From Acidimicrobiales bacterium (GTDB lineage: Bacteria > Actinomycetota > Acidimicrobiia > Acidimicrobiales > Iamiaceae), in the NCBI GenBank assembly GCA_025463365.1, contig JAOBWM010000216.1, positions 1-53,454 on the forward strand: a DNA stretch of 53,454 bases, in the 5' to 3' direction. The notes under the pieces are model-generated. The model was not told the origin of the DNA and did not search any database. It saw only the letters and a list, made by a program, of their open reading frames with translations. Below, piece by piece: positions 30,799 through 45,300 of the stretch. The position numbers and the translations under genes were made by a program. Each line of letters opens with the position of its first letter. The first letter of the stretch is position 1.

Positions 30799-30871
30799 TG
30801 GAGACGATGGGAATCGAACCCACGACCCCCTGCTTGCAAAGCAGGTGCTCTGCCAACTGAGCTACGTCCCC
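30799..30871 (-). tRNA. tRNA-Ala(UGC)
   Basis: A 73-nt tRNA on the minus strand. It folds into a standard cloverleaf: acceptor GGGGACG with CGTCTCC (one G-U pair), D arm with AGCTCAGTTGGCAGAGC, anticodon stem CCTGC/GCAGG with loop TTTGCAA (anticodon TGC) and T loop GGTTCGATTCC. Discriminator is A; the following CC is encoded but not a full CCA. Its 5' end overlaps the left copy of the 17-bp repeat that bounds the genomic island, so the element inserted at the 5' rather than the usual 3' end. Confidence 0.95.
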
Positions 30872-30880
30872 GGGGGTTGT
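30864..30880. repeat. attL: left 17-bp direct repeat of the island
   Basis: ACGTCCCCGGGGGTTGT, identical to 44241-44257. The first eight bases are the 5' end of tRNA-Ala. Beyond the exact core, the next 50 or so bases on the right of each copy remain similar: a GAAAACCC motif starts 14 bases after each core, followed by GCGAGG. The attachment region is therefore longer than the exact repeat. Confidence 0.75.
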
Positions 30881-30886
30881 AGGGAT

Positions 30887-30902
30887 TCTGGTGGAAAACC
30901 CC
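30887..30902. repeat. left inverted arm of the island
   Basis: TCTG then GAAAACCCC, beginning seven bases after the left core. It is inverted relative to GGGGTTTTC plus CAGA at 44222-44236, just inside the right core. Arms of this kind are expected for recombinase or transposase binding. Confidence 0.5.
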
Positions 30903-31015
30903 GGTAGCCGGCGAGGATAACCAGGGGCCGCCTGCCAGCACGACTGCTTGGGGCGCTGCACGGGCTCGGGGGGCTCGTTCGGGGCCTCGGACCCGAACAT
31001 GGGGCGCCAGAACAA

Positions 31016-31032
31016 GCCCGCCTCGGGCGGGC
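31016..31032 (-). terminator. hairpin terminator of the transposase operon
   Basis: GCCCGCC (31016-31022) pairs with GGCGGGC (31026-31032) around a three-base loop. On the minus strand it comes six bases after the transposase stop and is followed by TTGTTCT, a short U-rich tail. Confidence 0.6.
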
Positions 31033-31037
31033 CGGAC

Positions 31038-32420
31038 TCAGGCGGCGTTGGCCGTTCCCTGAAGCGCCGCGGATCTAGATCGAGCAAGTCCAACAGCGAT
31101 GCTGTTGTAGACGAGGGCATACCCAAGGAGGTCGAGCAGTTGGGCGTCTGCGCCGTTTGAGTGGGCTCGGTTGATCCAGAGGGTGTCCTCGAGCTGGCGG
31201 TTGTTCGCCTCGCTGTCTGATCGGAGCGGGTACAAACGCTCGTAGTCGGGATCATCCGGTGGGATCAGGCGAAAGTTCTCGGACCGGTTCACCTTGTCCG
31301 TTTGCGTGGTGTCGGCGCGGACCCAGATCCTTCCTCCGCCGAGATGGTCCGGTAGCTCGTACTGACCGTGCCAGTAGTAGGTGCCGTCAGCGTTGCGTCC
31401 CGGTTTGGTCCGCAGGCGCTTCAAGGGTACGAAGACCTCGTCACCCTCTACATCAAAGTCAGCGATGCCGATCTGACTGCCCAACGCGTAGAGGCTGATC
31501 CGACGACCCTCGACCTCTCTGGTTTCGATTAGCGCAGACTTTTCCTCACGAGCTGCTTCGGCAGTCTCCGCACGCTTCGCGGTGGGCGGCGAAATCGGCA
31601 GGAGGCCAGCCCGCAGGATGGACCGGACGTGCTTGCCTCGAAGCGCCCCGTCGTAGACCACTGCTTGAGCTCCGGGAAGAGACGGCGTGATTCGCTCGAT
31701 GCATTCAACGGCAACTTGGGCCTCGCCAGTGGTGGAGGAAACGTGGTCGAGTCCGAGGATCATCCGCCCATGCCAGTGGGGCGTACGACCACTCATCATC
31801 AGGAACTTGTTGCCGTAGGCCGGGTTGCCTCCACCTTCCATATGGAGCTGTGCGGTGGGATCGGCTTTTCGGTGGCCGAGGATCTCGCCGGTCGCCTTGT
31901 CGACGATCGGCACGTTCCGCTTCGCGCGGTAGAGCGGTGTGATCACCTTGCCGTCCCCCGTGATGGTGCGGAGTTCGCCTGGGTGCGTGAAGGAGCCACC
32001 GGTTGAGGGGTCGGCGATGCCCATTTCGATCGCTTGGCGGGCACTTCCGATCTCGAACTCTCGGACGAGCGTGCGCAGCGTGTCGGGCTGCCGCAATCGG
32101 ATCTTGGCGTACTGCCAGTGGTGCCGCTGGGGAGCCCCGGATGGCGCCCACATTTCGGGACGGTCTGGATAACGCTCCCGTGCGGCGGCCATCACGGTCG
32201 GCCAGTGGCTGCGTAGTTCAGCGGCAGCCTTCCGTGCGCTCCACCCGATGCTGATGTACGCGTCGAAAAGGACCCAAACCCATTCCGGGTAGTGCCGAGG
32301 AGCGCCGGGTGTTCCGGGGGCCCGTCGTGGCGCCGACTCCCCCAGTTGCCAAAGTGCCTCGTTGGCGAGGACGAACTCGAGCTTCTCCATTGAGTTGAGG
32401 CTCATCTCCGGGCGGGCCAC
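31038..32420 (-). CDS. DDE transposase-like protein
   Basis: A 460-residue protein. Candidate catalytic acids sit in TGDGKVI (Asp156), AVVYDGALRG (Asp257) and LRSDSEANNRQLED (Glu404), with a helical N-terminal region (WSARKAAAELRSHWP) that looks DNA-binding. The last motif, followed by a hydrophobic helix with NSIA, matches the glutamate region of DDE_Tnp_1/IS4-type transposases. GTG 32420 is chosen because it overlaps the stop of the upstream recombinase-fold gene (TAGTG); TTG 32435 and ATG 32405 are alternatives. The pair is probably co-translated. A diverged fragment of the same family lies at about 45115-45300 outside the island. No flanking short target duplications typical of IS elements were found. 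Confidence 0.6.
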   Translation of the reverse strand: MARPEMSLNSMEKLEFVLANEALWQLGESAPRRAPGTPGAPRHYPEWVWVLFDAYISIGWSARKAAAELRSHWPTVMAAARERYPDRPEMWAPSGAPQRHHWQYAKIRLRQPDTLRTLVREFEIGSARQAIEMGIADPSTGGSFTHPGELRTITGDGKVITPLYRAKRNVPIVDKATGEILGHRKADPTAQLHMEGGGNPAYGNKFLMMSGRTPHWHGRMILGLDHVSSTTGEAQVAVECIERITPSLPGAQAVVYDGALRGKHVRSILRAGLLPISPPTAKRAETAEAAREEKSALIETREVEGRRISLYALGSQIGIADFDVEGDEVFVPLKRLRTKPGRNADGTYYWHGQYELPDHLGGGRIWVRADTTQTDKVNRSENFRLIPPDDPDYERLYPLRSDSEANNRQLEDTLWINRAHSNGADAQLLDLLGYALVYNSIAVGLARSRSAALQGTANAA

Positions 32421-33469
32421 TAGTGCTCGTTCCAACGGTGGCCGACCAATGCAGCCGTCGCGTCGAGGCTGCCGTATCCGAGCCGGCGAGCGGCTGCTTC
32501 GATGCTTCCGGTCTCCTCAAGGACCCGACGTCCAGCCCATGCGGTAACGGATCGTGCGGTGACCTCTCGCGCTCGCCAAACCCCCGCCCTGATCATGACA
32601 ATCCGCACCAGCTCCGTGGCGCGGGTACGCCGGCCGTTCCCAGTCGATGAGGACGACCCGACCAGGACCCATTCCCAAGACGCACCATCGAGGCGGCGCA
32701 AGTGAGTAACCGCCCACGGTGAGAGTGGAATCGTTCGGTCGACCAGCGTGTCGAGGCCGACCCTGACGAGTGCTGCGTCAAGGTTCAAGTGACCGTGACG
32801 CACGTTTCCGATCTCGGCGGTCGATGCACCCGTCTCCATCAGTGCCCACGCCGCCGGCTCGCGCGTGGCGACCAGCGTGCCGGGAGCTGCCGATCGACAG
32901 AGCTCCACCTCCCGCGTGGTCAGAGGCCGCACTGCTCTCGGTTCACGCTGCGGCGAGACGACATCCAACAGGGGGTCGTGGTCCGAGAGGCCCACATCGC
33001 GGAGGATGCGAAAGAGGAACCGAAGGGCTGTTCCTCGTAGCTCGACGGTGCGGGAGCTGGGTCCTGCCCCCCCTACCAGCGGAGCAACCATGAATCGAGT
33101 GGCGATTCCTTCTCGTGAGACGCCGGCAACAGTCGTCACCCCGCCAGCGTTTCGTGCATATCGGGCGAAGCGTCGCCAGATGCCTGCGTAGATGTCGAGG
33201 GAGGTTTCGGCGCACAGCCGACCGCTTCGCGCTCGGTCGACCGCGAACTCGATGGCCTCATCGAGGTTCACCACTCCACTCGCGAACCGATCGCCCACCT
33301 CAGCCAAGACAATCAACCGACCGAGGTCGCGCCGGTCGAAGCCGGGCAGCACCAGCTCGACCGCCTGGTGCCCCACCACTCCCGGCTCGAGCCGTGACCA
33401 TGACCGGGGGCGCGGCCAGTCCAAATCGAGGCTGAGTTGGAGGTTGGAGCGAGTGGTCAAGGAAGTCAT
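32420..33469 (-). CDS. tyrosine-recombinase-fold protein lacking catalytic residues
   Basis: A 349-residue protein whose C-terminal half follows the order of a tyrosine recombinase: ALMETGASTAEIGNVRHGHLNLD, then TIPLSPWAVTHLRRL, VTARSVTAWAGRRVLEE and AARRLGYGSLDATAALVGH. However, each position expected to be catalytic differs: the first Arg (TGxR) is Ser, the HxxRH box reads RSVTA, the later His is Tyr and the nucleophile Tyr is Val. It should therefore bind DNA but not cleave. The N-terminal region has a SAM-like core-binding domain (about 85-170). ATG 33469 has no good Shine-Dalgarno. It is translated just ahead of the DDE protein, with which it may form one recombination machine. Confidence 0.6.
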   Translation of the reverse strand: MTSLTTRSNLQLSLDLDWPRPRSWSRLEPGVVGHQAVELVLPGFDRRDLGRLIVLAEVGDRFASGVVNLDEAIEFAVDRARSGRLCAETSLDIYAGIWRRFARYARNAGGVTTVAGVSREGIATRFMVAPLVGGAGPSSRTVELRGTALRFLFRILRDVGLSDHDPLLDVVSPQREPRAVRPLTTREVELCRSAAPGTLVATREPAAWALMETGASTAEIGNVRHGHLNLDAALVRVGLDTLVDRTIPLSPWAVTHLRRLDGASWEWVLVGSSSSTGNGRRTRATELVRIVMIRAGVWRAREVTARSVTAWAGRRVLEETGSIEAAARRLGYGSLDATAALVGHRWNEH

Positions 33470-33482
33470 GAGTTCGGGAACA

Positions 33483-33542
33483 CCTACGTTCGGGAGCGTA
33501 GGGTATCGCGGACACAGACTTTCCCGCCATCGGTGCTACGAT
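33483..33542. promoter_or_regulatory. divergent control region with inverted repeat and -10 box
   Basis: CCTACG (33483-33488) and CGTAGG (33497-33502) form an inverted repeat with eight bases between, 14 bases upstream of the recombinase-fold gene. On the plus strand TACGAT (33537-33542) lies six bases before GTG 33549, suggesting a leaderless transcript for the helix-turn-helix gene. The inverted repeat may be its operator, controlling the recombination genes. Confidence 0.4.
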
Positions 33543-33548
33543 GGCGCT

Positions 33549-34277
33549 GTGGAGTCGATGGCACCAAGGCGCTTCCCCCTTGAGACCGAAGGCGAATGGC
33601 TGGCCATCGGTCAGAAGGGATGGGCGGTCTGGCACCACCCGGATTCCAGTTCTGTGGCCTTTATTCGCTTCGAGAGCTTCGGACCGGTTTGGATGATCGG
33701 CGAGGTCCGATTCGTCAGGCTCGACATCAGCTACCGACTCCAGGCCAACGATCTGAGGCTGCTGGCCCTCGGTCGTGTGCAGTCCATGGCTTCCGACCCC
33801 GACATCAAAGCTCTGCTCGATGCGGGCCGTTCGAGCGAGGCCCTGCCAGTCCTCGACCCATCCCAGGGGTCCGTACGGTCGATCGTGGATGCCTGCGAAC
33901 GCCTCCCCGAACGGCCGAGAGCATCGTCGCTTGCCATATCCGTGCCTCCGAAGGGCCAGCGGGACATGTACTTCTACGACATCCTCGAGACGGTCTACCG
34001 CCGAGCGGCGAGCCAGAGCAGCCATCCGGCCAAGGACATCGCCGAAGCCAACGGCGTGCCGGTTACCACGGTGCATTCCTGGCTCAAGGCGATGCGCAAG
34101 GTTCGAGCCGAACAGGCTCAGCAGGCCGCGACAGTCGCAGTGGGCCTGGCAGCCATAAACCAGCTGGTGAAGCAGCTTCCGGACGAACCCATCGGGTCCC
34201 TGACCTTCGTGGAGGAGACCCTCGACGACGGCTCCATCCAGCTGAGCGTACAGACCGAACCACCCAAGGAATCCTGA
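33549..34277 (+). CDS. helix-turn-helix protein of the island
   Basis: A 242-residue protein. Residues about 158-183 (AKDIAEANGVPVTTVHSWLKAMRK) form a clear helix-turn-helix of the kind found in small actinobacterial element proteins that pair an AEALGV-S-x-V turn with a W recognition helix. The N-terminal half (WAVWHHPDSSSVAFIRFESFGPVW) is a beta-rich domain I do not recognise. GTG 33549 is used because of the TACGAT box six bases before it; ATG 33558 is possible. It is divergent from the recombinase/transposase pair and probably regulates it or takes part in excision. Confidence 0.6.
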   Translation: MESMAPRRFPLETEGEWLAIGQKGWAVWHHPDSSSVAFIRFESFGPVWMIGEVRFVRLDISYRLQANDLRLLALGRVQSMASDPDIKALLDAGRSSEALPVLDPSQGSVRSIVDACERLPERPRASSLAISVPPKGQRDMYFYDILETVYRRAASQSSHPAKDIAEANGVPVTTVHSWLKAMRKVRAEQAQQAATVAVGLAAINQLVKQLPDEPIGSLTFVEETLDDGSIQLSVQTEPPKES

Positions 34278-34315
34278 AGCAGCGCCGGGGCGGGTCTCCA
34301 CCAGGGTCGCCGCGT

Positions 34316-34621
34316 TCACCCCCAGACCGCGAAGCGGAACCAAGCGAGGCGCTCCTCGCCCAGGTGCACAGCCAGTCGCCGATCAACCGCCGCAGCTGAC
34401 GATCCGGTCCACTCCTCCCACAGCCGCCACGAGACCGAGAGCTGGAGCACCGCACGGGTTGCCAGCAACGCTTCGAGGGCGACTGATTCTGAGCCGTCCA
34501 GTCGCAGGGACCCGGCGGCATCGAGGAGCGATTCGTGACATTCCAGCCAGTCCTCGATGAACTGGGCGAACACCCCCGCACCGTCGAGTCCAGGGCGCGG
34601 GAGCCGCGTACGATCCACCAT
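34316..34621 (-). CDS. small hypothetical protein of the island
   Basis: A 101-residue helical protein (FIEDWLECHESLLDAAGSLRLDG and LATRAVLQLSVSWRLWEEW) with no recognised family. It has a strong ribosome site, TGGAGGT, about seven bases before ATG 34621, which makes it convincing. It is convergent with the helix-turn-helix gene and divergent from the AlpA-like gene. Confidence 0.6.
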   Translation of the reverse strand: MVDRTRLPRPGLDGAGVFAQFIEDWLECHESLLDAAGSLRLDGSESVALEALLATRAVLQLSVSWRLWEEWTGSSAAAVDRRLAVHLGEERLAWFRFAVWG

Positions 34622-34697
34622 GTCAGTACCTCCAGTTAGGTAGTGGCCGGGCCCCGGGCAGTTGGCGCTGCGCCGGGGCCACCTCTTGTTGCCTTAA

Positions 34698-34746
34698 GCC
34701 AACACACTACCGCCGCTGTTGGCCTGACACAACTACCCTTGGCCTG
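34698..34746. promoter_or_regulatory. operator-like repeats before the AlpA-type gene
   Basis: GCCAACA (34698-34704) and TGTTGGC (34717-34723) form a perfect 7-bp inverted repeat with a 12-base spacer. TTGGCCTG occurs twice, at 34719-34726 and 34739-34746. TACCCT at 34734-34739 lies eight bases before the ATG at 34748 and fits a leaderless -10. The cluster is AT-richer than its surroundings and sits between two divergent genes. Confidence 0.45.
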
Positions 34747-34747
34747 C

Positions 34748-34954
34748 ATGGGTCCGCGACACGATCTCGACGACCTTCTTGATGCCGAGCAGGTCGCTGC
34801 TCTCCTCGGCCTGAGCAGCACCGGCGCCGTGAGCGTCTACAAGCGCAGGTACCCCGACTTCCCAGAGCCCGCGATTGTGCGGGGCTCTGGCCGCTGCCAA
34901 CTCTGGGTTCGCCAAGAGGTCGAGGCCTGGAAGGCCGGCCGTCCTCAGGAGTGA
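34748..34954 (+). CDS. AlpA/MerR-like excisionase-type DNA-binding protein
   Basis: A 68-residue winged-helix protein. LLDAEQVAALLGLSSTGAVSVYKRR followed by FPEPAIVRGSGRCQLWVRQEVEAWKA is the usual pattern of AlpA/helix_turn_helix-17 proteins (recognition helix, wing with W and EVEAW). Such proteins act as excisionases or activators of integrase genes in mobile elements. The start at 34748 follows the AlpA-family N-terminus and a TACCCT box. It points the opposite way to the recombination genes and has its own operator-like repeats. Confidence 0.72.
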   Translation: MGPRHDLDDLLDAEQVAALLGLSSTGAVSVYKRRYPDFPEPAIVRGSGRCQLWVRQEVEAWKAGRPQE

Positions 34955-35041
34955 CAGGATTCGGGCCCGTCAGCTCTTTCGAAACCGTCGGACGAACTCA
35001 ACGAGACTGACCTCAAGGGCGCGACCACCGCCTGCCCGTCG

Positions 35042-37453
35042 TCACTGCACGGCCTCCAAGCTCTTCTTCTCGAAGTACCGGAACTTCTGGATGGCATCGT
35101 TCATCTGCCCGATGTTGAAGACCCCGACGTCGGTGAGCTTCCGGAACCCGTCAAGGCTCAAGCCGGTGGCCCGCAGGAAGAGGTCGGTGTCCAACGATTC
35201 GATCACGTGAAGGAGGCGCTCCTCGCGGAAGTCCGTGACGTACATGAAGATCAGCACCTTGGCGCTGACCTTCTTGAGTTTCTCCCGGATGTTCCTCCGG
35301 CGCTGGGCCAGCTCCCTCTTCGGCTTCTTCTGCTCGGCGTTCGACCCGCCGGCCCTCTTCACCTGACCGAGCTTTTGGGAGGCCGTGACGACCTTCTCGG
35401 CCTCCTCGCGGATGTTGCGGAAGTCCTCGATCTGCTCCAGCTCGGCGATGAGGTCTTGGTCCTGGAGGAGCCGGCCCATCGTGACGCCGGTGAGGTTGTA
35501 GAGGTCGACTGAGCGCCACTTGCGGGCCAGGGAGTTGGCGCTGATGCCGCCGTGGGCCCAGTCGAGAATGGCATCGGTGTCGAGCCGCTCCATCTGACCG
35601 CCGTCGATGGCGAAGATCGGGAGGAAGTTCAAGAGCTCTCTGAGGACGTCGTGCTGGGTGGTGTCACGATCGGCGGAGTTATTGGCGATCTCGGTGCCGT
35701 ATAGGGCGACGAGGCTGAGCGCGCGGTTCGGGTCGAACTCGAAGACGTACGCCGTCTCCTTCCTGATCACTCCTTCGTCCTTCCACGGGGACTGCACCCG
35801 GAAGGCCGCCTGGAAGTAGGACTCGGGTGCCTTCAGTGACCGGAGCATGAAGATCGAGGACCACTCCGGCACGGTGACGCCCGTCATCAACTTGCCGCAG
35901 GACAGGGCAATCGACCCGCTCTTGCCCTCGGTCTCCGCCCGCCTGATGGCCCGTCGCATCGGCTCGAGGGCGGCGGCGCCGATCTTCGCCTTCGTGCCCG
36001 CGGCCACGTGGATCTCGTAGGTCGAGAAGAAGGCGTCGGACCGCAGGAGGTCGGCCATCGCCTCACACGCGGCCACGTCGGGCAAGAACCAGACGGAGTG
36101 GCGGACGGCTTCCTTGAACTGCGCCGCCTCGTAGGGGAAGGGCGGCTTCTCGCCTCCAATGATGGCGCCGGCGATCTGCTTCTTGCCTCGGACCAGGTCG
36201 AGGAACGAGGCGACGTGGTCACCATGGTCGAAGGCGGAGGTATCGCCGATCTTCTTGGCCTTGAAGAACGTGTTGAGGTCGAATCCATCGAACTCGCCGT
36301 CGTCGGCCCAGGCGCCCGCGGCATCGCCCATCGAGTAGGTGAACATCTCCATCCGCGGCAGCTCGGCATAGGGGTTGGGGCCCACTGATGCCTCGCACGC
36401 TCGCTTCTCGCGCTGCTCGTCGATGTAGGTCCAGTTGAAGACCTGGTCCTCGGCGTACTCGCCATTGGTGATGGCCTTGAAGGGCGTTCCCGACAGGTGA
36501 AGGTGGAACGTCGTGCTCAGCCCGAAGTCCACGTCGACGAGGTCCGCCTCGGTGTCGTTGGACTGGTCGAACGCCTTCTCGACGAGCTTGGCGAAGGCGG
36601 CGTCGGCCTTGTCCTGGGGATCGTAGAGCTCCCGAGCGGTGGCTGTGGAGGCGCCGAAGTGGAACTCGTCGATGACGATGCAGTCCCAGTCGACGATGTG
36701 GAGCGTCTCGTTGCGCGGCTTCGGCCTGCCTTCGGCATCACGACCGGTCACGTCCTGGAAGGAGGCAAACCAAACGAACGGGTCGGCGCCATCGACGATG
36801 GCATCTGCGAGTGCGGTGGGCGTCTCACGATCGACGTAGCACCAGTCGATGAAGTCGACGTGGCCGAGCAGGTCGTCACGCCAGGCGGTGCGGACGGCGG
36901 GCTTGTAGGTGAGGACGAGGACCTTCTTCCAGCCCATCTCCCGCGCGAGCTGGTAGGTGGTGAACGTCTTGCCGAAGCGCATCTTGGCGTTCCACAAATA
37001 CTTCGGAGCCGGGGTGTCGCCGGCGTGCTTGCGGAAGTACGCGGCGGTCTGGCGGACCGCTTGCGCCTGCTCAGGACGGGGTTCGAAGGTGTGGATGCGC
37101 TCGGGGTTGAAGGGCACACCCTTCTGCAGCGAGACCACCGCCGCCTGCACCTCGTCGAGCGTCGCCTCGAACCACTCGCCCGCGACCTGTAGAACCCCGG
37201 CGTTCGTGAGCGCGTGGTGAACGTCGTGGTCGCCAAAACCCGAGCCGTCGGGAGAGTCGGCCGGTTCGGAGTGGAACAGAATGTCGACGCCATGCAGCCC
37301 GGGGAATGCGGTGTTGACCTGCTCCTTAACCCGGGCAATACCGGGCTTCTTGGTCTCACCCACCTTGATCCAGAACTCGCCCTTCTGTCCCGTCGAACGC
37401 TTCCACGGCTTCGCGTGGCCATCGTGGGTGTAGGCGTAGATGAACTTGTTCAC
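35042..37453 (-). CDS. GIY-YIG nuclease-SF2 helicase fusion, restriction-type
   Basis: An 803-residue protein. Residues 1-70 resemble a GIY-YIG/T5orf172 nuclease (FIYAYT, then FWIKVGETKK and IARVKEQ). From about 145 it is a superfamily 2 helicase: WNAKMRFGKTFT as Walker A (Lys162), CIVIDEFHFG as box II (DEFH 262-265), LSGTPFK as motif III-like, and ESYFQAAFRVQSPWK as motif VI. The last 200 residues are helical and basic (KRELAQRRRNIREKLKK). GTG 37453 overlaps the stop of the methylase frame (GTGA). Last gene of the ImmA-HD-methylase-helicase operon. It is probably the translocating/cleaving subunit of a restriction system that recognises unmodified DNA. Confidence 0.78.
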   Translation of the reverse strand: MNKFIYAYTHDGHAKPWKRSTGQKGEFWIKVGETKKPGIARVKEQVNTAFPGLHGVDILFHSEPADSPDGSGFGDHDVHHALTNAGVLQVAGEWFEATLDEVQAAVVSLQKGVPFNPERIHTFEPRPEQAQAVRQTAAYFRKHAGDTPAPKYLWNAKMRFGKTFTTYQLAREMGWKKVLVLTYKPAVRTAWRDDLLGHVDFIDWCYVDRETPTALADAIVDGADPFVWFASFQDVTGRDAEGRPKPRNETLHIVDWDCIVIDEFHFGASTATARELYDPQDKADAAFAKLVEKAFDQSNDTEADLVDVDFGLSTTFHLHLSGTPFKAITNGEYAEDQVFNWTYIDEQREKRACEASVGPNPYAELPRMEMFTYSMGDAAGAWADDGEFDGFDLNTFFKAKKIGDTSAFDHGDHVASFLDLVRGKKQIAGAIIGGEKPPFPYEAAQFKEAVRHSVWFLPDVAACEAMADLLRSDAFFSTYEIHVAAGTKAKIGAAALEPMRRAIRRAETEGKSGSIALSCGKLMTGVTVPEWSSIFMLRSLKAPESYFQAAFRVQSPWKDEGVIRKETAYVFEFDPNRALSLVALYGTEIANNSADRDTTQHDVLRELLNFLPIFAIDGGQMERLDTDAILDWAHGGISANSLARKWRSVDLYNLTGVTMGRLLQDQDLIAELEQIEDFRNIREEAEKVVTASQKLGQVKRAGGSNAEQKKPKRELAQRRRNIREKLKKVSAKVLIFMYVTDFREERLLHVIESLDTDLFLRATGLSLDGFRKLTDVGVFNIGQMNDAIQKFRYFEKKSLEAVQ

Positions 37454-39098
37454 TCGTCGATGTCCTCGTCGGCATCGGGCTCGTTGGGGAGCCGGTACTT
37501 CGAGCCACCGGGAAGGTGCGAGGCCGGGATCGCCGATTCGAGCGACAAGATCGGCTCGCGGGGCTGGATCGTCGCCTCGATGTGGGCGCTCTCCGCCTTG
37601 GTGAGACCGAACTCCTCGTAGAGATCGGGGTCGGTCCAGCGCTTCTTCATGTCGAGCTGGGGGACGAAGCGGAAGCGGTCGGGCGTGACGTGTTGCGTGA
37701 CCTTCCGCTGCAGCACCAGGAACCGCACGAACTTCGATGCCAGGTAGTAGGCGAAGTTCTCCGTCTCTTTCTTGGTCTTGAACATCCCGGCGATGAAGTA
37801 GGTCTGGGTGCAGGCGGAACCCGGTGCCACCGGGATCGGCTCGCCAAGGACGTAGGACACCTCGCGCCCGTGCCCGTCCCCTGCCATGGGCAGCAGCACC
37901 TTCCACGCGTCGATCCACTGGTGGTTGCGTTGGATCTGATCCGGCCGGCTGTAGCCGACGCGTTGTTGTAGAGGAGCGGGATGGCTCCCTCGAAGGGCTC
38001 GGCCACGCTGCCCGGGTAGTTCGAGCGCATCGTGAGCCCGAAGGGCTTGGTGACGGAGCACCAGGCCTCGATAGATGGCAGCTTCCTCTTCCGCACCTTG
38101 TCGATGATCGGTACCGCTCGATTGTCTCGCACGAGCACCCCTTCGCCTGCTCGGAGATCGCGGGTCACGGTCGACACAACGGTCCCGTCGATCCGAGTGG
38201 AGAACTCGCAGTCGCCGTCGTGCTCGCGGTCCCACAGGAAGTAGGAGACGCCTCCCTTGATCTCGACCTGAGGGAAGACGTCGAACAGCTTCGGGTTGTC
38301 GACCACCTTCGCCAACCGCCGATCGTTCAGCATCTGGTCGCGAAAGCCATCAAGCCCCTTGCCCCCGGCGAACCAGCGAGAGGGGGTGATCATCACGACG
38401 TAGCGGGGGTCCATGGCGATGGCCCGCTGGACGAAGAAGTGGTAGATCGTCGAAGCCGTGGCGCCGTGGCCCTCAGTCCCGATCTGGTACGGCGGGTTGC
38501 CGACGATCACATCAAACTTCATGTCAACCAGGTCCTTCGTTGGATACGTCCCATGAATGAACGAGTAGGCGTGCTGCTCGCGCTTTTCGCGGATCAGCTT
38601 CGCCGGAGCACGACACATGACGCACTGCTTGCCCTGCCGGTCGAGGGTGTGCTGGGTCTCGACGAACTGCACGTTCCCGTCGGCGCGGTCGAAGACGACC
38701 ACCCAGTCCTCGATAGCTTCGTCGACGACCGCGACGCCCGTGGCATCCTTGGTCTGGTACAGCGACCGGCGGGCGATGTCTGCGGAGAGGCTCGTGATAG
38801 CGGCGCCGAAGATCATGTGGCGTTGGATGTGGTCGCGCCGCAAGCGGGCGTCTGGCTGCCAGCCTTGGAGGCCGACCATCAGTCGCTTGAATACCTCGCG
38901 GAGGAAGACGCCAGACTTGGTGGCCGGGTCGAGCCACCGGTACTCGGGATTGGTCCACACCTCCGGAGGGAGCGTGTCGAGCATGGCGTTGGCGACCTTC
39001 GGAGGGGTGAAGACCTCGTCGTTGGGGAGCTGCGCCAGCGTCTCCAGCACGTCTGGCACATGGAACGAGACCGACGAGCTGGAACTCTTTGGGGTCAC
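37450..39098 (-). pseudogene. Eco57I-like N6-adenine DNA methyltransferase, frameshifted
   Basis: The reading frame from GTG 39098 carries a SAM motif LDPATKSGVFLREV (Asp57), the catalytic motif FDVIVGNPPYQIG (Asn201), and a long target-recognition region. At about 37962, after AIPLLYNN, the frame is lost. The continuation (RVGYSRPDQIQRNHQWIDAW and onward) is in the -1 frame and runs to 37450. Reading both gives about 549 residues, normal for this type. A single missing base explains it; no canonical slippery heptamer is present. The first stop upstream overlaps (GTGA), and the second frame ends in a GTGA overlap with the helicase. If the break is real, modification could be lost while the nuclease remains. 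Confidence 0.75.
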
Positions 39099-39703
39099 GG
39101 CTTCATCGCCGACGTCAGCTCGCGGTAGTGAATCGCCGGGAGCGGCTCCGGCGGCGGATTGAAGAGGTCGAACTCCGGGTCCTCGAGGTAGGAGGGCGTG
39201 CGCACGAAGGTCTCGTCGTCGCCCGGAGCCCATTCGACGAGCCGGATCAAACTGGCGTCCTCAAGGGTGTGGCCTCGGACGACGTTGGCCGAGAGGATGA
39301 CACCGAGGGCCTCGGAGAACTCGGGCGTCGGTTCGTGGCCCTTCCCGGCGAACTCCTTGTCGAGCAGGGCTCGCATCCGCTCACGGGCTTCAAGGACATT
39401 GTCCTCGCTGATGTCGATGGCGTAGATCGAGGCGACCGCTCGCAACGTGGCGAACTCGTACCAGTTCGGCGTGCCGCCGTGCTCCTGCTCGCTGACGAGT
39501 GAGAGCTTCCGGGCCAGGATCGCCACGAGGAAGTTGCCGTGGCCACACGCCGGCTCTAGGAAAAGTGCGTCGATGTCGCGAAACACGTCCGGGATGAGGG
39601 CAAGCATCGCTTTGACCTCGCGCTCGGGTGTGTAGACCTCGGCCAGCTCACGAACGCGCTCGCGGGATTTGATCTGGCCCGTCTGACCTCGATCGCCGTC
39701 CAC
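39095..39703 (-). CDS. SAM-binding methyltransferase-like protein of the restriction operon
   Basis: A 202-residue protein with VYTPEREVKAMLALIP and the SAM loop LFLEPACGHGNFLVAIL (50-58 region), then IYAIDISEDNVLEARERM as motif II. It ends soon after FDLFNPPPEPL, where a catalytic NPPY would be expected but is altered. It looks like the N-terminal part of an N6-adenine methylase and may assist the following methylase as a second subunit. GTG 39703 is the likely start; the longer frame is overlapped by the HD gene. Its stop overlaps the next GTG. Confidence 0.65.
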   Translation of the reverse strand: MDGDRGQTGQIKSRERVRELAEVYTPEREVKAMLALIPDVFRDIDALFLEPACGHGNFLVAILARKLSLVSEQEHGGTPNWYEFATLRAVASIYAIDISEDNVLEARERMRALLDKEFAGKGHEPTPEFSEALGVILSANVVRGHTLEDASLIRLVEWAPGDDETFVRTPSYLEDPEFDLFNPPPEPLPAIHYRELTSAMKP

Positions 39704-39812
39704 GATGCAATCTTGCCCTCTCAGCCTCAGTGCCGTCGGCCCCCTGGTCGAACCGCCAGCGACCAGCCGCCGCAGCGGCCCCTGTTCGTGGAGTAGAGAG
39801 CTCAAGCGACGG

Positions 39813-41651
39813 CTAGGAGCCCGGCGCGTGTTCGTCGGATTCGACGAGGAGTTCCGCCCGCCGCAAGAGGTCCGAGTACGTGGCTCCTCGCCCCTTGTGC
39901 GCCGCCACGTCCTGCCGGAGCCGCCGCCGAGTCTCCGTCTGGATCGAGTCGTCCAGTTGCAGGTACGCGTCGATTTCAGCCAGCACAAGGTCAACTGGCC
40001 ACGGGACAGGCTTGCCGCTGCGGTCCATGAACCTGAGCCCGAGCTGTTCACCGAGGCTCGACAAGAGACGACGTTCAGTTGCGTCGTCCAGCTCGGGATG
40101 CCCAAAGACCGTCACACCCCACAGGCTCTCGTGGGAGCGGTAGATGTCGCTGACTCGTAGGTTGATGGCCTTGTCGAGTTCGTTAACGTGCCCGTTCTGG
40201 TCCACGAGTACACCAGCGACCTTGAGCCGCATCTTTGGTGATGGGAGCCACACGGCAACTCTCCATGCCTCCGGGACCTCAGCCCATTCGGCGGCGCGTC
40301 GCTCGACCTGCCGGCGCTTGTCGGGCTTGCCGAACTGGTCGAAGACCCTTTTTGCCAGCGCCTGGTCCTCCTTGGCATCGGCGCGACCAATGCGCCTGTA
40401 GAGCTGCCGGTTGAGTACGTCATCTGCCAGATCGCCCACGGCCTGGCGGCGCTTGTCGCCACCGGCGCCTTGTCCCCAGTCGCGCAGGCTCTCGAGCAAG
40501 CCGTCGTCTCCGAAGGCGAGGAACTTGGCTTCAAGCACGGCTCGAACCTCTGCCAGGCGTTCCTCGAAAATCTCAGCGCCCTCGAGACGGACTGCCTCCC
40601 GCAACGCATTCCCATCGTTCGGATGCGCCGCCGCCGTGCGCGGGTCGTGTCTTCCCACAACGTCCACCCAGACGGCGTCGGCCCACATCTCGAGGAGCTT
40701 CCCGATCATCGCGTCGGCGGCCAGTTTGGCGTGGTGGGTCAGCGCCCTCTCGGAGAGCTCGTAGCGGAACCGGAGGTACTTCACGAGCTCGGTGACGACG
40801 TCATGTCGGTCATGGCCGTCGCGAGTAACGCGAATCACCATGCGCTTCGGGAAGTACCGCTCATTGGAGGAGCTGACGTAGAAGTCGTGCATGAAACGAC
40901 GACCGATTGCGATCGGAAGACCACAGAACGCATGATCGCGGGCCAGGTAGTCCATCAGGTCGGCACAGATGGTGTTCCCGACGATGTCAGCTACGAAGGG
41001 ATAGACGTAATCGTCCTGCGGCCAGGGTGCGTCATCGTCCCCTGGCTTACTGACGATGAGCATCTTTAGCTGCTCAGCGAAGGCGGGATCGGCGCTTGCG
41101 AACAGATCAGCAAGTTCACGGGGAAGGCTCGACCAGATTGCCTCGTAGCGCGGCTCGTTGTGGTCATGAGACCTGAGAACCCCGAGGTCGTCTTCAATTG
41201 TGTGCCCAAAGGGAACGTGAGTGACGTCGTGCAGCAATGCCCCTAGCCGGGCCAGAACCGTCACCTTCGCGAGCTCCTTGTCGAGCTGTGAAAGGGTCTG
41301 GTTGCGCGGGATGCGGCTCGACCACTCGCTGAACAAATCGTCTGCTGGGCGTGGACCCCGCCGGTTGTCGATCACCGCATCCAGAAGGTCCTGCGCCGCA
41401 CGAAGGGCGCCCAAGGAATGCGATAGCCGGCTATGGGTAGCACCGGGATAAACGAGGTGGGTGGTTCCGAGCTGCCGGACGCGACGCAGTCGCTGCAGAG
41501 CAGAGCTGTCGAGGAAGGTTGCTTCCAGGACATTCACGAAGATGTCGCCGTGGATTGGATCCGTGATTGTCTTGCTGGGTTCGAGCCATCGGGAGGGAAT
41601 CCCCCACGGCTCAGAAGCTGCTTGCTCTGCGGTCAATCCCCACTTTGGCAT
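39813..41651 (-). CDS. HD-domain phosphohydrolase (dGTPase/SAMHD1-like)
   Basis: A 612-residue protein. DPIHGDIFV near the start, ATHSRLSHSLGALRAAQDLL, and LGALLHDVTHVPFGH with His141-Asp142 make an HD metal site of the SAMHD1/dGTPase group. ADIVGNTICADLMDYLARDH supplies the later Asp. The C-terminal 250 residues are unassigned. Relatives hydrolyse dNTPs, and several anti-phage systems use that to starve phage replication. ATG 41651 has TGGAGG five bases upstream. It lies 27 bases after the ImmA-type gene and before the methylase genes on the same strand. A 109-base gap (39704-39812) separates it from the next gene. Confidence 0.8.
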   Translation of the reverse strand: MPKWGLTAEQAASEPWGIPSRWLEPSKTITDPIHGDIFVNVLEATFLDSSALQRLRRVRQLGTTHLVYPGATHSRLSHSLGALRAAQDLLDAVIDNRRGPRPADDLFSEWSSRIPRNQTLSQLDKELAKVTVLARLGALLHDVTHVPFGHTIEDDLGVLRSHDHNEPRYEAIWSSLPRELADLFASADPAFAEQLKMLIVSKPGDDDAPWPQDDYVYPFVADIVGNTICADLMDYLARDHAFCGLPIAIGRRFMHDFYVSSSNERYFPKRMVIRVTRDGHDRHDVVTELVKYLRFRYELSERALTHHAKLAADAMIGKLLEMWADAVWVDVVGRHDPRTAAAHPNDGNALREAVRLEGAEIFEERLAEVRAVLEAKFLAFGDDGLLESLRDWGQGAGGDKRRQAVGDLADDVLNRQLYRRIGRADAKEDQALAKRVFDQFGKPDKRRQVERRAAEWAEVPEAWRVAVWLPSPKMRLKVAGVLVDQNGHVNELDKAINLRVSDIYRSHESLWGVTVFGHPELDDATERRLLSSLGEQLGLRFMDRSGKPVPWPVDLVLAEIDAYLQLDDSIQTETRRRLRQDVAAHKGRGATYSDLLRRAELLVESDEHAPGS

Positions 41652-41678
41652 TTGCCCCTCCAGGCCCCACGCACGGGC

Positions 41679-42329
41679 CTAAGAAGCTACCACCAGGCCC
41701 ATGAGTCTCGCCGAGAGATCCGGGGCAGCCAACAGTGCCAGGACCGGGAACGACGCGATACCGGGATCGTCCGACGCTATTGCCCATTCGGGAAGTAGGA
41801 GGTGGGCGGCGAACAGGTCAGCGACCACCTCCTCCCTGTCAACGTATGAGACCACCCGGTCGCCGCTTGAGGCGTGGTAGTAGCGCGAGTGGCCAACCTC
41901 ATGCGCAATCCGCCAGGCGTGGGTGGCAGCTACAAAGCTCTGGTCGTCTGGATAGAGGTGCGCATGGGCCCGATCGGAGGGCGACACATCCGGGTCGACG
42001 ACGATTCGGAAGCCGCCCGACAGGCGAGGGAGCAGCAAGGCGTCCTCACGGTCGAACTTCGCCGAGAGGCGCCGCATGTCGACGGTGAAGGCCCCGGTCG
42101 CCTCTAACGCTGATGGAAGTAGGTCGACGAGGCCCGCGAGCGGAAGATCGAGTTCCTTGCGAGCGAGGTCCACCTCGGTCCGCGCCCAGTCCATCTCCTC
42201 GCCGGTCGGGGAGACATCGCACCAGTACGAGCCGACGATGTCGACGCGGGTCGGGAGGGACCCTCCCGGGACACCGTGAGCAAGAGCCCGGGTTGGGGCC
42301 GCATGGAAATCCCATCGGTGTAGTTCCAC
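41679..42329 (-). CDS. ImmA/IrrE-type zinc metallopeptidase
   Basis: A 216-residue protein with the zinc motif RIAHEVGHSRYYH (HEVGH 143-147) and the downstream VDREEVVADLFAAHLLLP, the usual third ligand and Ala-rich helix of ImmA/IrrE peptidases. These enzymes cleave XRE-type repressors, switching on mobile or stress genes. GTG 42329 is supported by TAAGTT six bases upstream (42336-42341, minus strand); no Shine-Dalgarno is present. The first 40 residues do not match the family, so a start at ATG 42194 is possible. It is divergent from an XRE gene, the normal partner, and is followed by the HD gene. Confidence 0.8.
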   Translation of the reverse strand: MELHRWDFHAAPTRALAHGVPGGSLPTRVDIVGSYWCDVSPTGEEMDWARTEVDLARKELDLPLAGLVDLLPSALEATGAFTVDMRRLSAKFDREDALLLPRLSGGFRIVVDPDVSPSDRAHAHLYPDDQSFVAATHAWRIAHEVGHSRYYHASSGDRVVSYVDREEVVADLFAAHLLLPEWAIASDDPGIASFPVLALLAAPDLSARLMGLVVAS

Positions 42330-42335
42330 AGGTGC

Positions 42336-42424
42336 AACTTACGCGCATGCCACGCGCGTAGCAATCGCGAGGGTGGGCCTCTACGCGCATAGCCCTGGAA
42401 GCCCGGTCATTCGAGACATACCGT
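42336..42424. promoter_or_regulatory. divergent operator-promoter between ImmA and XRE genes
   Basis: A perfect inverted repeat TACGCGC (42340-42346) and GCGCGTA (42354-42360) has a third half-site TACGCGC at 42382-42388. The minus-strand -10 candidate TAAGTT (42336-42341) touches the first arm. On the plus strand TACCGT (42419-42424) stands seven bases before the ATG at 42432. This is the layout of an autoregulated XRE switch: a repressor bound to the TACGCGC arms would cover the ImmA-operon promoter. Confidence 0.6.
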
Positions 42425-42431
42425 GTTGCCC

Positions 42432-42956
42432 ATGCAGGAGGTGCGGGACGAAAGCGCTGCTGTCCCCTCACCCCCGTGGGGGGACGAGGATGCGATACGG
42501 CTCGGGCTCGCGCGCACGCGCATGGGGCTGACCCAGAAGCGACTTGCCGAGCGGTTCGATGCCACCCAAGGCTCCGCCAGTCGCTGGCAGCGCGTTCCAA
42601 CGCCGCAGCAACCTGCGCCGGGGCGCGTCGCGGCCCTACGCGATTTCTGCGCTCAGGTTCTAGACGGACAGGACGAAGAGTTCGCCGGTCCGGAGCCCGT
42701 CCGCCCAGAGGCTCACGAGGAAGGTCGCGAGGACAACGACGTCGGTTCGACGTCAGATTCGGACGCGTTCGCCGATGCCATCTGGCTCAGCACCGGTGAA
42801 CGAGCGCTCGCTGACCGACAGGCCGCACTAGTGGATGCCACGATCAACCACCTCGCCACGACCACCGAGGGCTACACGGAGGCTGATGGAGCCGCTCATC
42901 GATGGTGCGCTCAGGTCCTAGGCCTGGGATACGGCATGGCACCGCCCGACAACTGA
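42432..42956 (+). CDS. XRE family transcriptional regulator
   Basis: A 174-residue protein. The N-terminal helix-turn-helix reads LGLARTRMGLTQKRLAERFD followed by ATQGSASRWQR (about residues 22-52). The middle is acidic and probably flexible (EGREDNDVGSTSDSDAF), and the C-terminal third is a small helical domain. It is likely the repressor of the island switch and the substrate of the adjacent ImmA peptidase, by analogy with ImmR/ImmA pairs. ATG 42432 is preferred because TACCGT lies seven bases upstream; GTG 42423 falls inside that box. Confidence 0.75.
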   Translation: MQEVRDESAAVPSPPWGDEDAIRLGLARTRMGLTQKRLAERFDATQGSASRWQRVPTPQQPAPGRVAALRDFCAQVLDGQDEEFAGPEPVRPEAHEEGREDNDVGSTSDSDAFADAIWLSTGERALADRQAALVDATINHLATTTEGYTEADGAAHRWCAQVLGLGYGMAPPDN

Positions 42957-42999
42957 GGGTCACCGCCCACCCTGGTCTGCGGCGTCCCACCCCATCAGG

Positions 43000-43005
43000 T
43001 AGACC
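43000..43005 (+). promoter_or_regulatory. putative leaderless -10 box TAGACC
   Basis: GGTAGACC ends six bases before the ATG at 43012 of the SIR2 gene. The final base is not T, so it is a weaker member of the TAnnnT-start class. It would let the SIR2 gene be expressed independently of the XRE gene. Confidence 0.35.
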
Positions 43006-43011
43006 CATCGC

Positions 43012-44106
43012 ATGTCTGGGGAGGGTCAACCACCAGTCCGCCGCCTCACGATCTCGTTTCTAGGGGCCGGCGCCTCCAAGGCCGCAGGGCTCCCCCTGAC
43101 TGAGGAACTCCTGGACCGCATCTACCCCCGCTCTGGGCCCAGCTCCTGGCACGGTGTCCGAACTCAAGCTGCCTGGAAACGGGCGCTCGGCTCGGCCGTG
43201 AAGGTTCTCTACCCCGGCGGCGGAGACCCCGCATTCCGTCCGAACGTCTCAGACCTGTTCACCATCCTTGAGGTCATGGCCTCCGTCCACAGTGGGCGCG
43301 AGCGGGTTCCTCTTGACGCTGAGACCCTCCTTCGCGAGCTTCGGCTCGAGATCGCGGGCGGGCTGCACAGGATGCTCCGCCGTATGGACATCGCGGAGGC
43401 GCCTCACACCAAGTGGTTCAAGTCGGCGAACCGGCCCTCGGTGGTCATCACCTCAAACTGGGATTCTCTCAGCGAGCGAGCCGCCGTTGAGGCCGGGCTC
43501 ATCCCCCTGCTGCGCTGGCCAACCAATGGAGCAGGCGCTCGACGCCAGAAGCTCCGAGCCAATGAGATCGTGATTCTCAAGCTCCACGGATCCACCGACT
43601 GGGGGCGGTATGCGGACCGAGCCGTCACCCTGTCGCCGCTCAAGGACTGGTACGCCAAGCTCGACACTGCGGTCGGTGAGTCCACCCCTTTCGGGCGAGC
43701 AACCAAGCCAGCCGATCTCCTGCTGCGCTTCTTCACGATTGAGGGCGCAACGGACGGGCTCCCATCCGTCTCCGGGTTCACGTCCCCGCTCATGGCCACC
43801 ATGGCGTTCGGCAAGAAGACCCAGATCGACGCTCTCCGTGATCTGTGGGATGACGCGTACTGGGCGTTGTCCCGCGCTCGCGTGCTCGACCTGGTCGGGT
43901 ACAGCTTCCCGGATGACGACCTTGAACTCCGGGCGCTCTTCCGGACGGCGACGCGCCGCGCGGGCCGAGCAGACCTGGATGAAAGTCTGACACTCACCGT
44001 CCGGAACCCGTCGCCGGAGGCGCACGACCGGGCACGTCAGTTCCTGGGTCCGACGCTGGGCTCCGACTATCGGGGGGCCGATGAGTGGGTGCCCGGCTTC
44101 TCCTGA
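43012..44106 (+). CDS. SIR2-like domain protein, probable NAD-consuming defence effector
   Basis: A 364-residue protein of the prokaryotic SIR2_2 type. FLGAGASKAAGLP (GAGAS 18-22) is the NAD-binding loop, ITSNWDSL (147-151) carries the conserved Asn and Asp, KLHGSTDW (His192) supplies the catalytic His, and GYSFPDDD (296-303) closes the fold. It lacks the Cys zinc ribbon of protein deacetylases, so it belongs with the NADase SIR2 domains of Thoeris, DSR and short-Argonaute systems. No sensor domain is obvious beyond the N-terminal helical insert (about 30-120). It is the last gene of the island, 55 bases after the XRE gene. It probably triggers abortive infection when activated. Confidence 0.8.
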   Translation: MSGEGQPPVRRLTISFLGAGASKAAGLPLTEELLDRIYPRSGPSSWHGVRTQAAWKRALGSAVKVLYPGGGDPAFRPNVSDLFTILEVMASVHSGRERVPLDAETLLRELRLEIAGGLHRMLRRMDIAEAPHTKWFKSANRPSVVITSNWDSLSERAAVEAGLIPLLRWPTNGAGARRQKLRANEIVILKLHGSTDWGRYADRAVTLSPLKDWYAKLDTAVGESTPFGRATKPADLLLRFFTIEGATDGLPSVSGFTSPLMATMAFGKKTQIDALRDLWDDAYWALSRARVLDLVGYSFPDDDLELRALFRTATRRAGRADLDESLTLTVRNPSPEAHDRARQFLGPTLGSDYRGADEWVPGFS

Positions 44107-44221
44107 ACCTGCGGTCATGATCATGCTGCCGGCCGGGGCTCGCCCAGCGAGGAAGCCATTCCAGATCCGACCGATCACCGTTCCACGCCCGCGTAGCCCG
44201 ACTGCTCCGACCTGCCGAGGA

Positions 44222-44236
44222 GGGGTTTTCTACAGA
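44222..44236. repeat. right inverted arm of the island
   Basis: GGGGTTTTC with CAGA shortly after, ending five bases before the right core. It is the inverse of the left arm at 30887-30902. Confidence 0.5.
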
Positions 44237-44240
44237 CCCC

Positions 44241-44257
44241 ACGTCCCCGGGGGTTGT
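44241..44257. repeat. attR: right 17-bp direct repeat of the island
   Basis: Exact copy of 30864-30880. It is not part of a tRNA: no cloverleaf can be built around it. A GAAAACCC motif follows at 44271-44278, with the same 13-base gap as at the left copy, so the host side resembles the former upstream region of tRNA-Ala. Confidence 0.75.
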
Positions 44258-45060: not shown

Positions 45061-45114
45061 ACGATGGTCACCGATCCATCGGCAGCGGAGCATCCACCGC
45101 AACACTTGGGATGG

Positions 45115-45300
45115 GCCGATGGCATGAGCTGGTAGTTCTCGGACCGGTTGATCGTGCGTTGGCGATCTTCCTCGGTTGTGTCGGCGCGGATCATGGTCGT
45201 GTCGCCGCTGAGGTGGTCGGGCAGCCGGCAGACGCCGTACCGTCCGCGGGGCTGGAACTGGGAGAGACCCGGCTGGTTGCAACGGAGTATTGGCCCACCA
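45115..45300 (-). pseudogene. fragment of a DDE transposase related to the island enzyme
   Basis: One minus-strand frame reads RLPDHLSGDTTMIRADTTEED and NRSENYQLMP, matching ELPDHLGGGRIWVRADTTQTD and NRSENFRLIP in the intact island transposase (about 31240-31370). The DNA also shares stretches such as GTTCTCGGACCGGTT. The rest of the gene is missing. Both copies point the same way, suggesting an older related element inserted at or near this site. Confidence 0.65.

What the first reader, a model, noticed from the sequence alone, without database searches (positions are those of the whole stretch)
35042..42329. Candidate defence operon: ImmA peptidase, HD hydrolase, two methylase genes, GIY-YIG helicase
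Five minus-strand genes with tight or overlapping junctions combine a restriction-type methylase and nuclease-helicase with a SAMHD1/dGTPase-like HD enzyme and a repressor-cleaving peptidase. I do not know this gene set as a named system. It suggests two layers: restriction first, then nucleotide depletion.
Basis: partly seen in the sequence, partly recalled or inferred. Interest (0 to 1): 0.8.

Follow-up and report, generated by a model that had tools for sequence, protein, structure and literature searches.

The report
dNTPase–peptidase pair beside a restriction system
Two genes, an enzyme that probably destroys DNA building blocks and a protein-cutting partner, recur together across distant bacteria and one phage contig beside different DNA-restriction systems, so this looks like an uncatalogued plug-in antiviral module rather than one five-gene system.

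Summary
The five minus-strand genes exist (35042-42329), but they are two units. M1-M2-GIY-YIG-helicase is a known-type three-gene restriction-modification (R-M) module, found complete in 13/13 other loci, never with the HD or peptidase gene. Its methylase M2 is frameshifted here near 37960. The other unit is ImmA-HD: a full-length SAMHD1-type dNTP hydrolase with an intact active site, beside an ImmA/IrrE (M78) peptidase with HExxH...E. In 9 of 10 genomes with a full-length relative of this rare HD subfamily, an M78 gene is adjacent on the same strand, upstream in three and downstream in six, often overlapping; 0 of 23 control loci have one. Yet HD-ImmA is operon-like with other R-M systems elsewhere (Dcm-Vsr-GHKL; Hma) and next to Dcm-REase-Vsr in another, so 'restriction plus nucleotide depletion' survives in looser form. 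Best explanation: an uncatalogued two-gene defence module, dNTP depletion under peptidase control, as a swappable second layer. Pairing is shown; biochemistry and defence are inferred. The cluster sits on a 13.4-kb island at tRNA-Ala with a recombinase and a SIR2 gene.

The parts
41679..42194 (-). ImmA/IrrE (M78)-type metallopeptidase, 171 aa, HEVGH + EE zinc ligands; ORF open to 42329
   Evidence: PADLOC capP 1.2e-5; HExxH and E invariant in 7 aligned relatives; model (mean pLDDT 66.5) aligns with CapP 7t5t, Z 6.6, and M. tuberculosis regulator 6d2s, Z 7.7, both below Z 8
39813..41651 (-). SAMHD1/EF1143-type HD dNTP triphosphohydrolase, 612 aa, intact H78/H141-D142/D231 metal site
   Evidence: PDB profile search 1.8e-32 to 9mr6, SAMHD1 about 1e-28; AlphaFold model pLDDT 83, Foldseek 1.2e-13 to 3irh; invariant catalytic residues
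39095..39703 (-). M1: methyltransferase-like partner subunit with SAM motif but no NPPY; GTG start at 39703 inferred
   Evidence: alignment with six plasmid relatives; weak PADLOC MTase hits
37450..39098 (-). M2: Eco57I-type N6-adenine methyltransferase with NPPY, interrupted by a one-base frameshift near 37960
   Evidence: Pfam Eco57I 2.4e-28; PADLOC PDLC03375 and PDLC03626 on both halves; intact relatives L002 and L003
35042..37453 (-). GIY-YIG-type nuclease plus SF2 (ResIII-like) helicase, 803 aa
   Evidence: PADLOC PDLC03626 4.2e-25; 51% identical to GIY-YIG nuclease family proteins on mycobacterial plasmids
42423..42956 (+). helix-turn-helix gene divergent from ImmA-HD, candidate repressor and peptidase substrate (inferred)
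   Evidence: PHROG transcriptional repressor 9.9e-5, PADLOC RmrA N-terminal part 4.5e-5; the same divergent HTH/ImmA/HD order in L021
30864..30880 (.). left copy of a 17-nt direct repeat at the 5' end of tRNA-Ala: island border candidate
44241..44257 (.). right copy of the 17-nt direct repeat
32420..33469 (-). XerC/D-like tyrosine recombinase of the island
   Evidence: NCBIfam TIGR02225 1.9e-4, below the curated cut-off

Best explanation
The conserved unit is a two-gene module: a SAMHD1-type dNTP triphosphohydrolase (HD) and an ImmA/IrrE-type metallopeptidase. It sits on a mobile defence island next to an unrelated three-gene GIY-YIG/Eco57I R-M module and a SIR2 gene. Most likely working: the peptidase senses a sign of infection, probably DNA damage or single-stranded DNA produced by restriction or phage replication, as its characterised relatives do. 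It then releases the HD enzyme, in this window by cleaving the divergently encoded HTH repressor; where no HTH gene is evident it may process HD or another partner. HD hydrolyses dNTPs and stalls phage DNA synthesis, or the cell. The module thereby backs up whichever restriction system it sits beside. Shown: the pairing, its conservation in both gene orders, intact catalytic residues, the SAMHD1 fold (predicted model), and neighbouring modification systems. Inferred: dNTPase activity, what the peptidase senses and cuts, and the defence role.
For: An M78 gene adjoins HD in 9 of 10 genomes: window, G190/L009, L012, L013, L016, L019, phage contig L020, G531/L021, G514/L062; the exception is Planctomycetota FR_29, L014-L017. 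0 of 23 control loci have an M78-motif gene (Fisher p = 2.6e-7, approximate, because the strict motif scan alone missed two positives, L013 and L062, found by a looser scan and Pfam). Both orders occur (ImmA upstream in window, L013, L021; downstream in six), always on one strand, overlapping in six of nine. HD is full-length SAMHD1-like: 1.8e-32 to 9mr6, about 1e-28 to SAMHD1; Foldseek 1.2e-13 to the E. faecalis HD protein solved with dGTP/dATP; H78, H141, D142, D231 and Q60, R75, H145, H150, Y235, D239 invariant in nine relatives. ImmA zinc residues invariant. Neighbours: Dcm-Vsr-GHKL, Hma, Dcm-REase-Vsr, TcmP-like PDC-M30A + DUF5131. Relatives of the peptidase act this way: ssDNA enhances PprI cleavage of DdrO, and also CapP cleavage of CapH (PMC10904395). 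dNTPases are established phage-defence effectors (PMC12265719).
Against: No experiment. Ten genomes is a small sample, largely metagenome-assembled. The ImmA model is of middling confidence and the gene is short (171 aa), lacking the C-terminal ~100 residues of the downstream-type relatives. Divergent HTH genes were seen only in the window and L021, so a common repressor target is not shown. HD and ImmA distances correlate only weakly (Mantel r = 0.51, p = 0.046). HD allosteric residues were not tested.
Confidence: 0.6

Rival explanations
1. Five-gene system: HD and ImmA are integral parts of the GIY-YIG/Eco57I restriction system and act in one pathway.
For: All five genes are co-directional with short junctions in the window.
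Against: 13 other complete M1-M2-helicase loci lack HD and M78 genes; the other HD loci lack M1/M2/helicase; the HD/M1 gap is 109 nt while the R-M genes overlap each other.
Confidence: 0.07
2. Toxin-antitoxin-like control: HD is a toxic dNTPase held down by the peptidase, which degrades HD or keeps it inactive; losing the peptidase or blocking it during infection frees HD.
For: Tight translational coupling and both gene orders; in Clover the partner of a dNTPase restrains its toxicity (PMC12265719); no HTH gene is evident beside most downstream-type pairs (by eye).
Against: Characterised M78 peptidases (PprI, CapP) cut repressors; the window and L021 have a divergent HTH gene as expected for that mode.
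Confidence: 0.2
3. The peptidase is an ImmR/ImmA-type control gene of the mobile island, and HD is a nearby metabolic or maintenance enzyme; adjacency reflects mobile-element packing.
For: The island has a recombinase and border repeats, and ImmA-like genes are common in mobile elements (general knowledge).
Against: Pairing holds in nine genomes with different surroundings, in both orders with overlaps, including operon-like placement with Hma and with Dcm-Vsr-GHKL, against 0 of 23 controls.
Confidence: 0.1

Closest known systems
Clover (CloA dNTPase + CloB nucleotidyltransferase) and the bacterial dGTPase defence
   Same: HD-fold dNTP hydrolase as the likely effector, paired with a regulatory gene in a two-gene unit
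   Different: The partner here is an M78 peptidase, not a nucleotidyltransferase; PADLOC dGTPase hits HD only at 5.1e-5
CapH/CapP of CBASS, PprI/DdrO, ImmR/ImmA
   Same: ImmA/IrrE-type peptidase, in the window beside a divergent HTH gene; structural alignment with CapP 7t5t at Z 6.6
   Different: The coupled effector is a dNTPase, no cyclase; HTH not evident in most relatives
SAMHD1 and E. faecalis EF1143 dNTPase
   Same: Full HD core plus C-terminal lobe, metal and substrate-pocket residues retained
   Different: No SAM domain; C-terminal region beyond residue ~450 only partly comparable; partnered with a peptidase
Type IIG / Type ISP-like ATP-dependent R-M enzymes (PADLOC PDLC03626 REase_MTase_IIG)
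   Same: SF2 helicase and Eco57I-type methylase; both window proteins match one fused model
   Different: Split over three genes; GIY-YIG-type nuclease instead of Mrr; M2 frameshifted here
Hma defence system
   Same: In L019 the HD-ImmA pair follows Hma genes on the same strand
   Different: Hma itself is not in the window

Membership tests
SAMHD1/EF1143-type dNTP triphosphohydrolase | H...HD...D metal-binding residues | tested here: met
   H78, H141-D142, D231 invariant in nine relatives, aligned with SAMHD1 and 9mr6
SAMHD1/EF1143-type dNTP triphosphohydrolase | SAMHD1-like fold over the core | tested here: met
   Foldseek 1.2e-13 to 3irh, TM (target) 0.67
SAMHD1/EF1143-type dNTP triphosphohydrolase | dNTP hydrolysis and allosteric activation | not testable with these tools
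   needs enzyme assay
ImmA/IrrE (M78) metallopeptidase | HExxH plus downstream glutamate zinc ligand | tested here: met
   H98 E99 H102, E121/E122 invariant
ImmA/IrrE (M78) metallopeptidase | Pfam Peptidase_M78 match | tested here: inconclusive
   window protein gave no Pfam hit at E 0.01; partner peptidases of HD in L013, L016, L020, L021 score above the gathering cut-off
Clover | CloB-type nucleotidyltransferase beside the dNTPase | tested here: not met
   no nucleotidyltransferase among the window neighbours scanned
CapH/CapP-type module | HTH repressor next to an M78 peptidase, controlling an effector operon | tested here: inconclusive
   divergent HTH in window and L021, not evident in the others; cleavage not testable
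Type IIG/ISP-like R-M module | ATP-dependent helicase with Walker A and DExH, plus NPPY methylase | tested here: met
   WNAKMRFGKT, DEFH, SGTP in the helicase; NPPY in M2; PDLC03626 on both
Type IIG/ISP-like R-M module | intact methyltransferase reading frame | tested here: not met
   M2 shifted near 37960; sequencing or assembly error not excluded

The most novel reading that the evidence does not exclude
HD-ImmA is a new two-gene antiphage system: a SAMHD1-type dNTPase unleashed by an ssDNA/DNA-damage-sensing ImmA/IrrE peptidase, carried as an interchangeable second layer beside different restriction systems, so that restriction products themselves could trigger nucleotide depletion.
Probability: 0.4. 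Interest if true: 0.75.

Novelty: new variant of a known kind. Interest (0 to 1): 0.55.

Why it matters
dNTP depletion is a shared weapon of human (SAMHD1) and bacterial immunity, and how bacterial dNTPases are kept harmless until infection is open apart from Clover. A conserved peptidase partner would give a second, protease-based switch, and its repeated placement beside restriction systems makes layered defence directly testable.

Tried and rejected
Five-gene conserved system: rejected by the neighbourhood survey. General HD proteins on plasmids and phages paired with M78: none of ten inspected; those are other HD subfamilies, several clearly housekeeping. Single-protein search of viral contigs with HD found nothing; alignment searches found one phage contig, L020. 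349 genomes of the phylum of L016 gave only L016's own genome. HD hits in G402, G622 (short proteins, partial matches) and G521 (fragment) were not counted. Promoter/terminator scan uninformative: 0 promoters, 4 terminators versus 4.5 expected. No solved relative of the helicase or M2 by single-sequence search. Literature searches found no description of an HD-ImmA defence pair; this covers open-access papers only. A Pfam scan of small flanking ORFs for HTH genes was prepared but not run; absence of HTH there is by eye. A search for the island's empty site in relatives was not conclusive.

Full report
What is there. The window carries five minus-strand genes between 42329 and 35042: an ImmA-like peptidase, an HD protein, a small methyltransferase-like protein (M1), an Eco57I-type methylase (M2) and a GIY-YIG/helicase protein. 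Family searches support each name, weakly for the peptidase and M1. Start-site inspection puts the ImmA gene at 42194-41679 (171 aa), 27 nt before HD. HD ends 109 nt before the likely M1 start, while M1/M2 and M2/helicase overlap by 4 nt. This already hints at two units, ImmA-HD and M1-M2-helicase.

The restriction module. Helicase relatives on plasmids and in other genomes of the window's phylum come with M1 and M2 directly upstream in all 13 loci examined. None has an HD or M78 relative nearby by tblastn with several queries or by motif. Both M2 and the helicase match one PADLOC Type IIG fusion model (PDLC03626), so this is a split version of a known ATP-dependent R-M architecture. In the window M2 is broken: alignment with intact relatives shows the frame moving by one base near 37960, after ...IPLLYNN and before VGYSRPDQI. 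Whether that is a real lesion or an assembly error cannot be decided here. M1 has a SAM motif but no NPPY.

The HD-ImmA pair. The HD protein belongs to a rare subfamily: 2 of 296 genomes of the class (counting its own). With an alignment of two members (A1), a scan of 84,980 species genomes gave eight loci, viral contigs one, and further genome searches two more usable ones. Counting genomes with a full-length relative, an M78/ImmA gene is adjacent on the same strand in nine: window, G190 (L009), Solirubrobacteraceae L012, L013, Porticoccaceae L016, Thermoleophilia L019, phage contig L020, G531 (L021), G514 (L062). The exception is a planctomycete with several copies (L014, L015, L017). L018 is only a partial match and was not counted. 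None of these other loci holds M1, M2 or the helicase (L062 by gene inspection). In 23 control loci (13 helicase loci, 10 loci of other HD proteins; 303 kb) no M78-motif frame was found. Gene order varies, ImmA upstream in three and downstream in six, with overlaps of 4-41 nt in six. Keeping adjacency while order changes argues for a functional link. Distances of the two proteins correlate only weakly (Mantel r = 0.51, p = 0.046).

What the proteins probably do. HD aligns over its core with SAMHD1 (about 1e-28), 9mr6 (a fungal SAMHD1, 1.8e-32) and EF1143 (2o6i, 4.1e-26). Its AlphaFold model (pLDDT 83) finds the same structures (best 3irh, E 1.2e-13). Metal ligands H78, H141, D142, D231 and substrate-pocket counterparts Q60, R75, H145, H150, Y235, D239 are invariant in nine sequences; the roles of the pocket residues are from general knowledge of SAMHD1. 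dNTPase activity is therefore likely but inferred. The peptidase has invariant HExxH and EE. Its model (pLDDT 66) aligns with CapP at Z 6.6 and a mycobacterial regulator at Z 7.7; both are under the Z 8 that the tool flags as possibly generic, so the motif and the sequence hits carry the assignment. Published relatives cut HTH repressors, and ssDNA enhances this for PprI and CapP (PMC10904395). The window has a divergent HTH gene at 42423-42956, as does L021; PADLOC's RmrA models match the window HTH with their N-terminal part and the peptidase with a later part. Repressor cleavage is thus the leading model for this window, and direct processing or restraint of HD the main alternative elsewhere.

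Company it keeps. HD-ImmA is co-directional and nearly contiguous with a C5 methylase-Vsr-GHKL set in G190 and with Hma genes plus DUF3644 in L019. It is divergent from a C5 methylase/Type II REase/Vsr set in G514, near a PDC-M30A-like TcmP and DUF5131 gene in L016, and lies between terminase and primase genes in a phage contig. So five of nine pairs, the window included, have a modification, restriction or candidate defence neighbour, each of a different kind except for the two C5-methylase/Vsr cases. Defence neighbours alone do not prove a defence function, since islands collect such genes.

The island. The cluster lies in a lower-GC stretch (64.7% versus 71.0% and 70.4% outside) from tRNA-Ala to 44.24 kb, flanked by an exact 17-nt repeat (30864-30880, 44241-44257), with a tyrosine recombinase. 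It also holds an HTH-SIR2 pair. This is probably a mobile defence island, so R-M and HD-ImmA may simply have arrived as co-travelling systems.

Verdict. Observation partly confirmed; interpretation partly supported. The novel part is the HD-ImmA pair, which PADLOC 2.0.0 does not recognise as a system (only weak hits of the single proteins) and which my literature searches, limited to open-access papers, did not find described. It is best rated a new variant of a known kind (dNTPase-based defence with a new regulator), not yet shown to defend.

Noticed in passing
window 30864-44257: 13.4-kb low-GC island at tRNA-Ala bounded by an exact 17-nt direct repeat, with a tyrosine recombinase; the repeat lies at the 5' end of the tRNA gene, unusual for such elements.
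   Followed up: partly
window 43012-44106 (+) with HTH 42423-42956: SIR2-like gene (PADLOC SIR2 1.4e-8) 55 nt behind the HTH gene, a further candidate defence gene divergent from ImmA-HD.
   Followed up: partly
window ~37960: One-base frameshift in the Eco57I-type methylase; an active helicase-nuclease without its methylase would be hazardous, so the R-M unit is either inactive or misassembled here.
   Followed up: partly
L020 8296-11452: HD-ImmA pair inside a phage contig between terminase and primase genes: phage-borne copy.
   Followed up: partly
window 31038-32435 and 45108-45225: DDE transposase-like gene and a 73-75% similar fragment 13.9 kb away: perhaps the remnant of a second insertion-sequence copy.
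   Followed up: no
L003 10774-18418 (Mycolicibacterium plasmid): The same GIY-YIG R-M module sits beside TIR, HIT-domain, helicase, DUF1156 and DUF499 genes: another stacked defence region.
   Followed up: no
L014, L015, L017 (Planctomycetota FR_29): Several similar, partly decayed copies of the HD gene with similar flanks in one genome, without ImmA.
   Followed up: no
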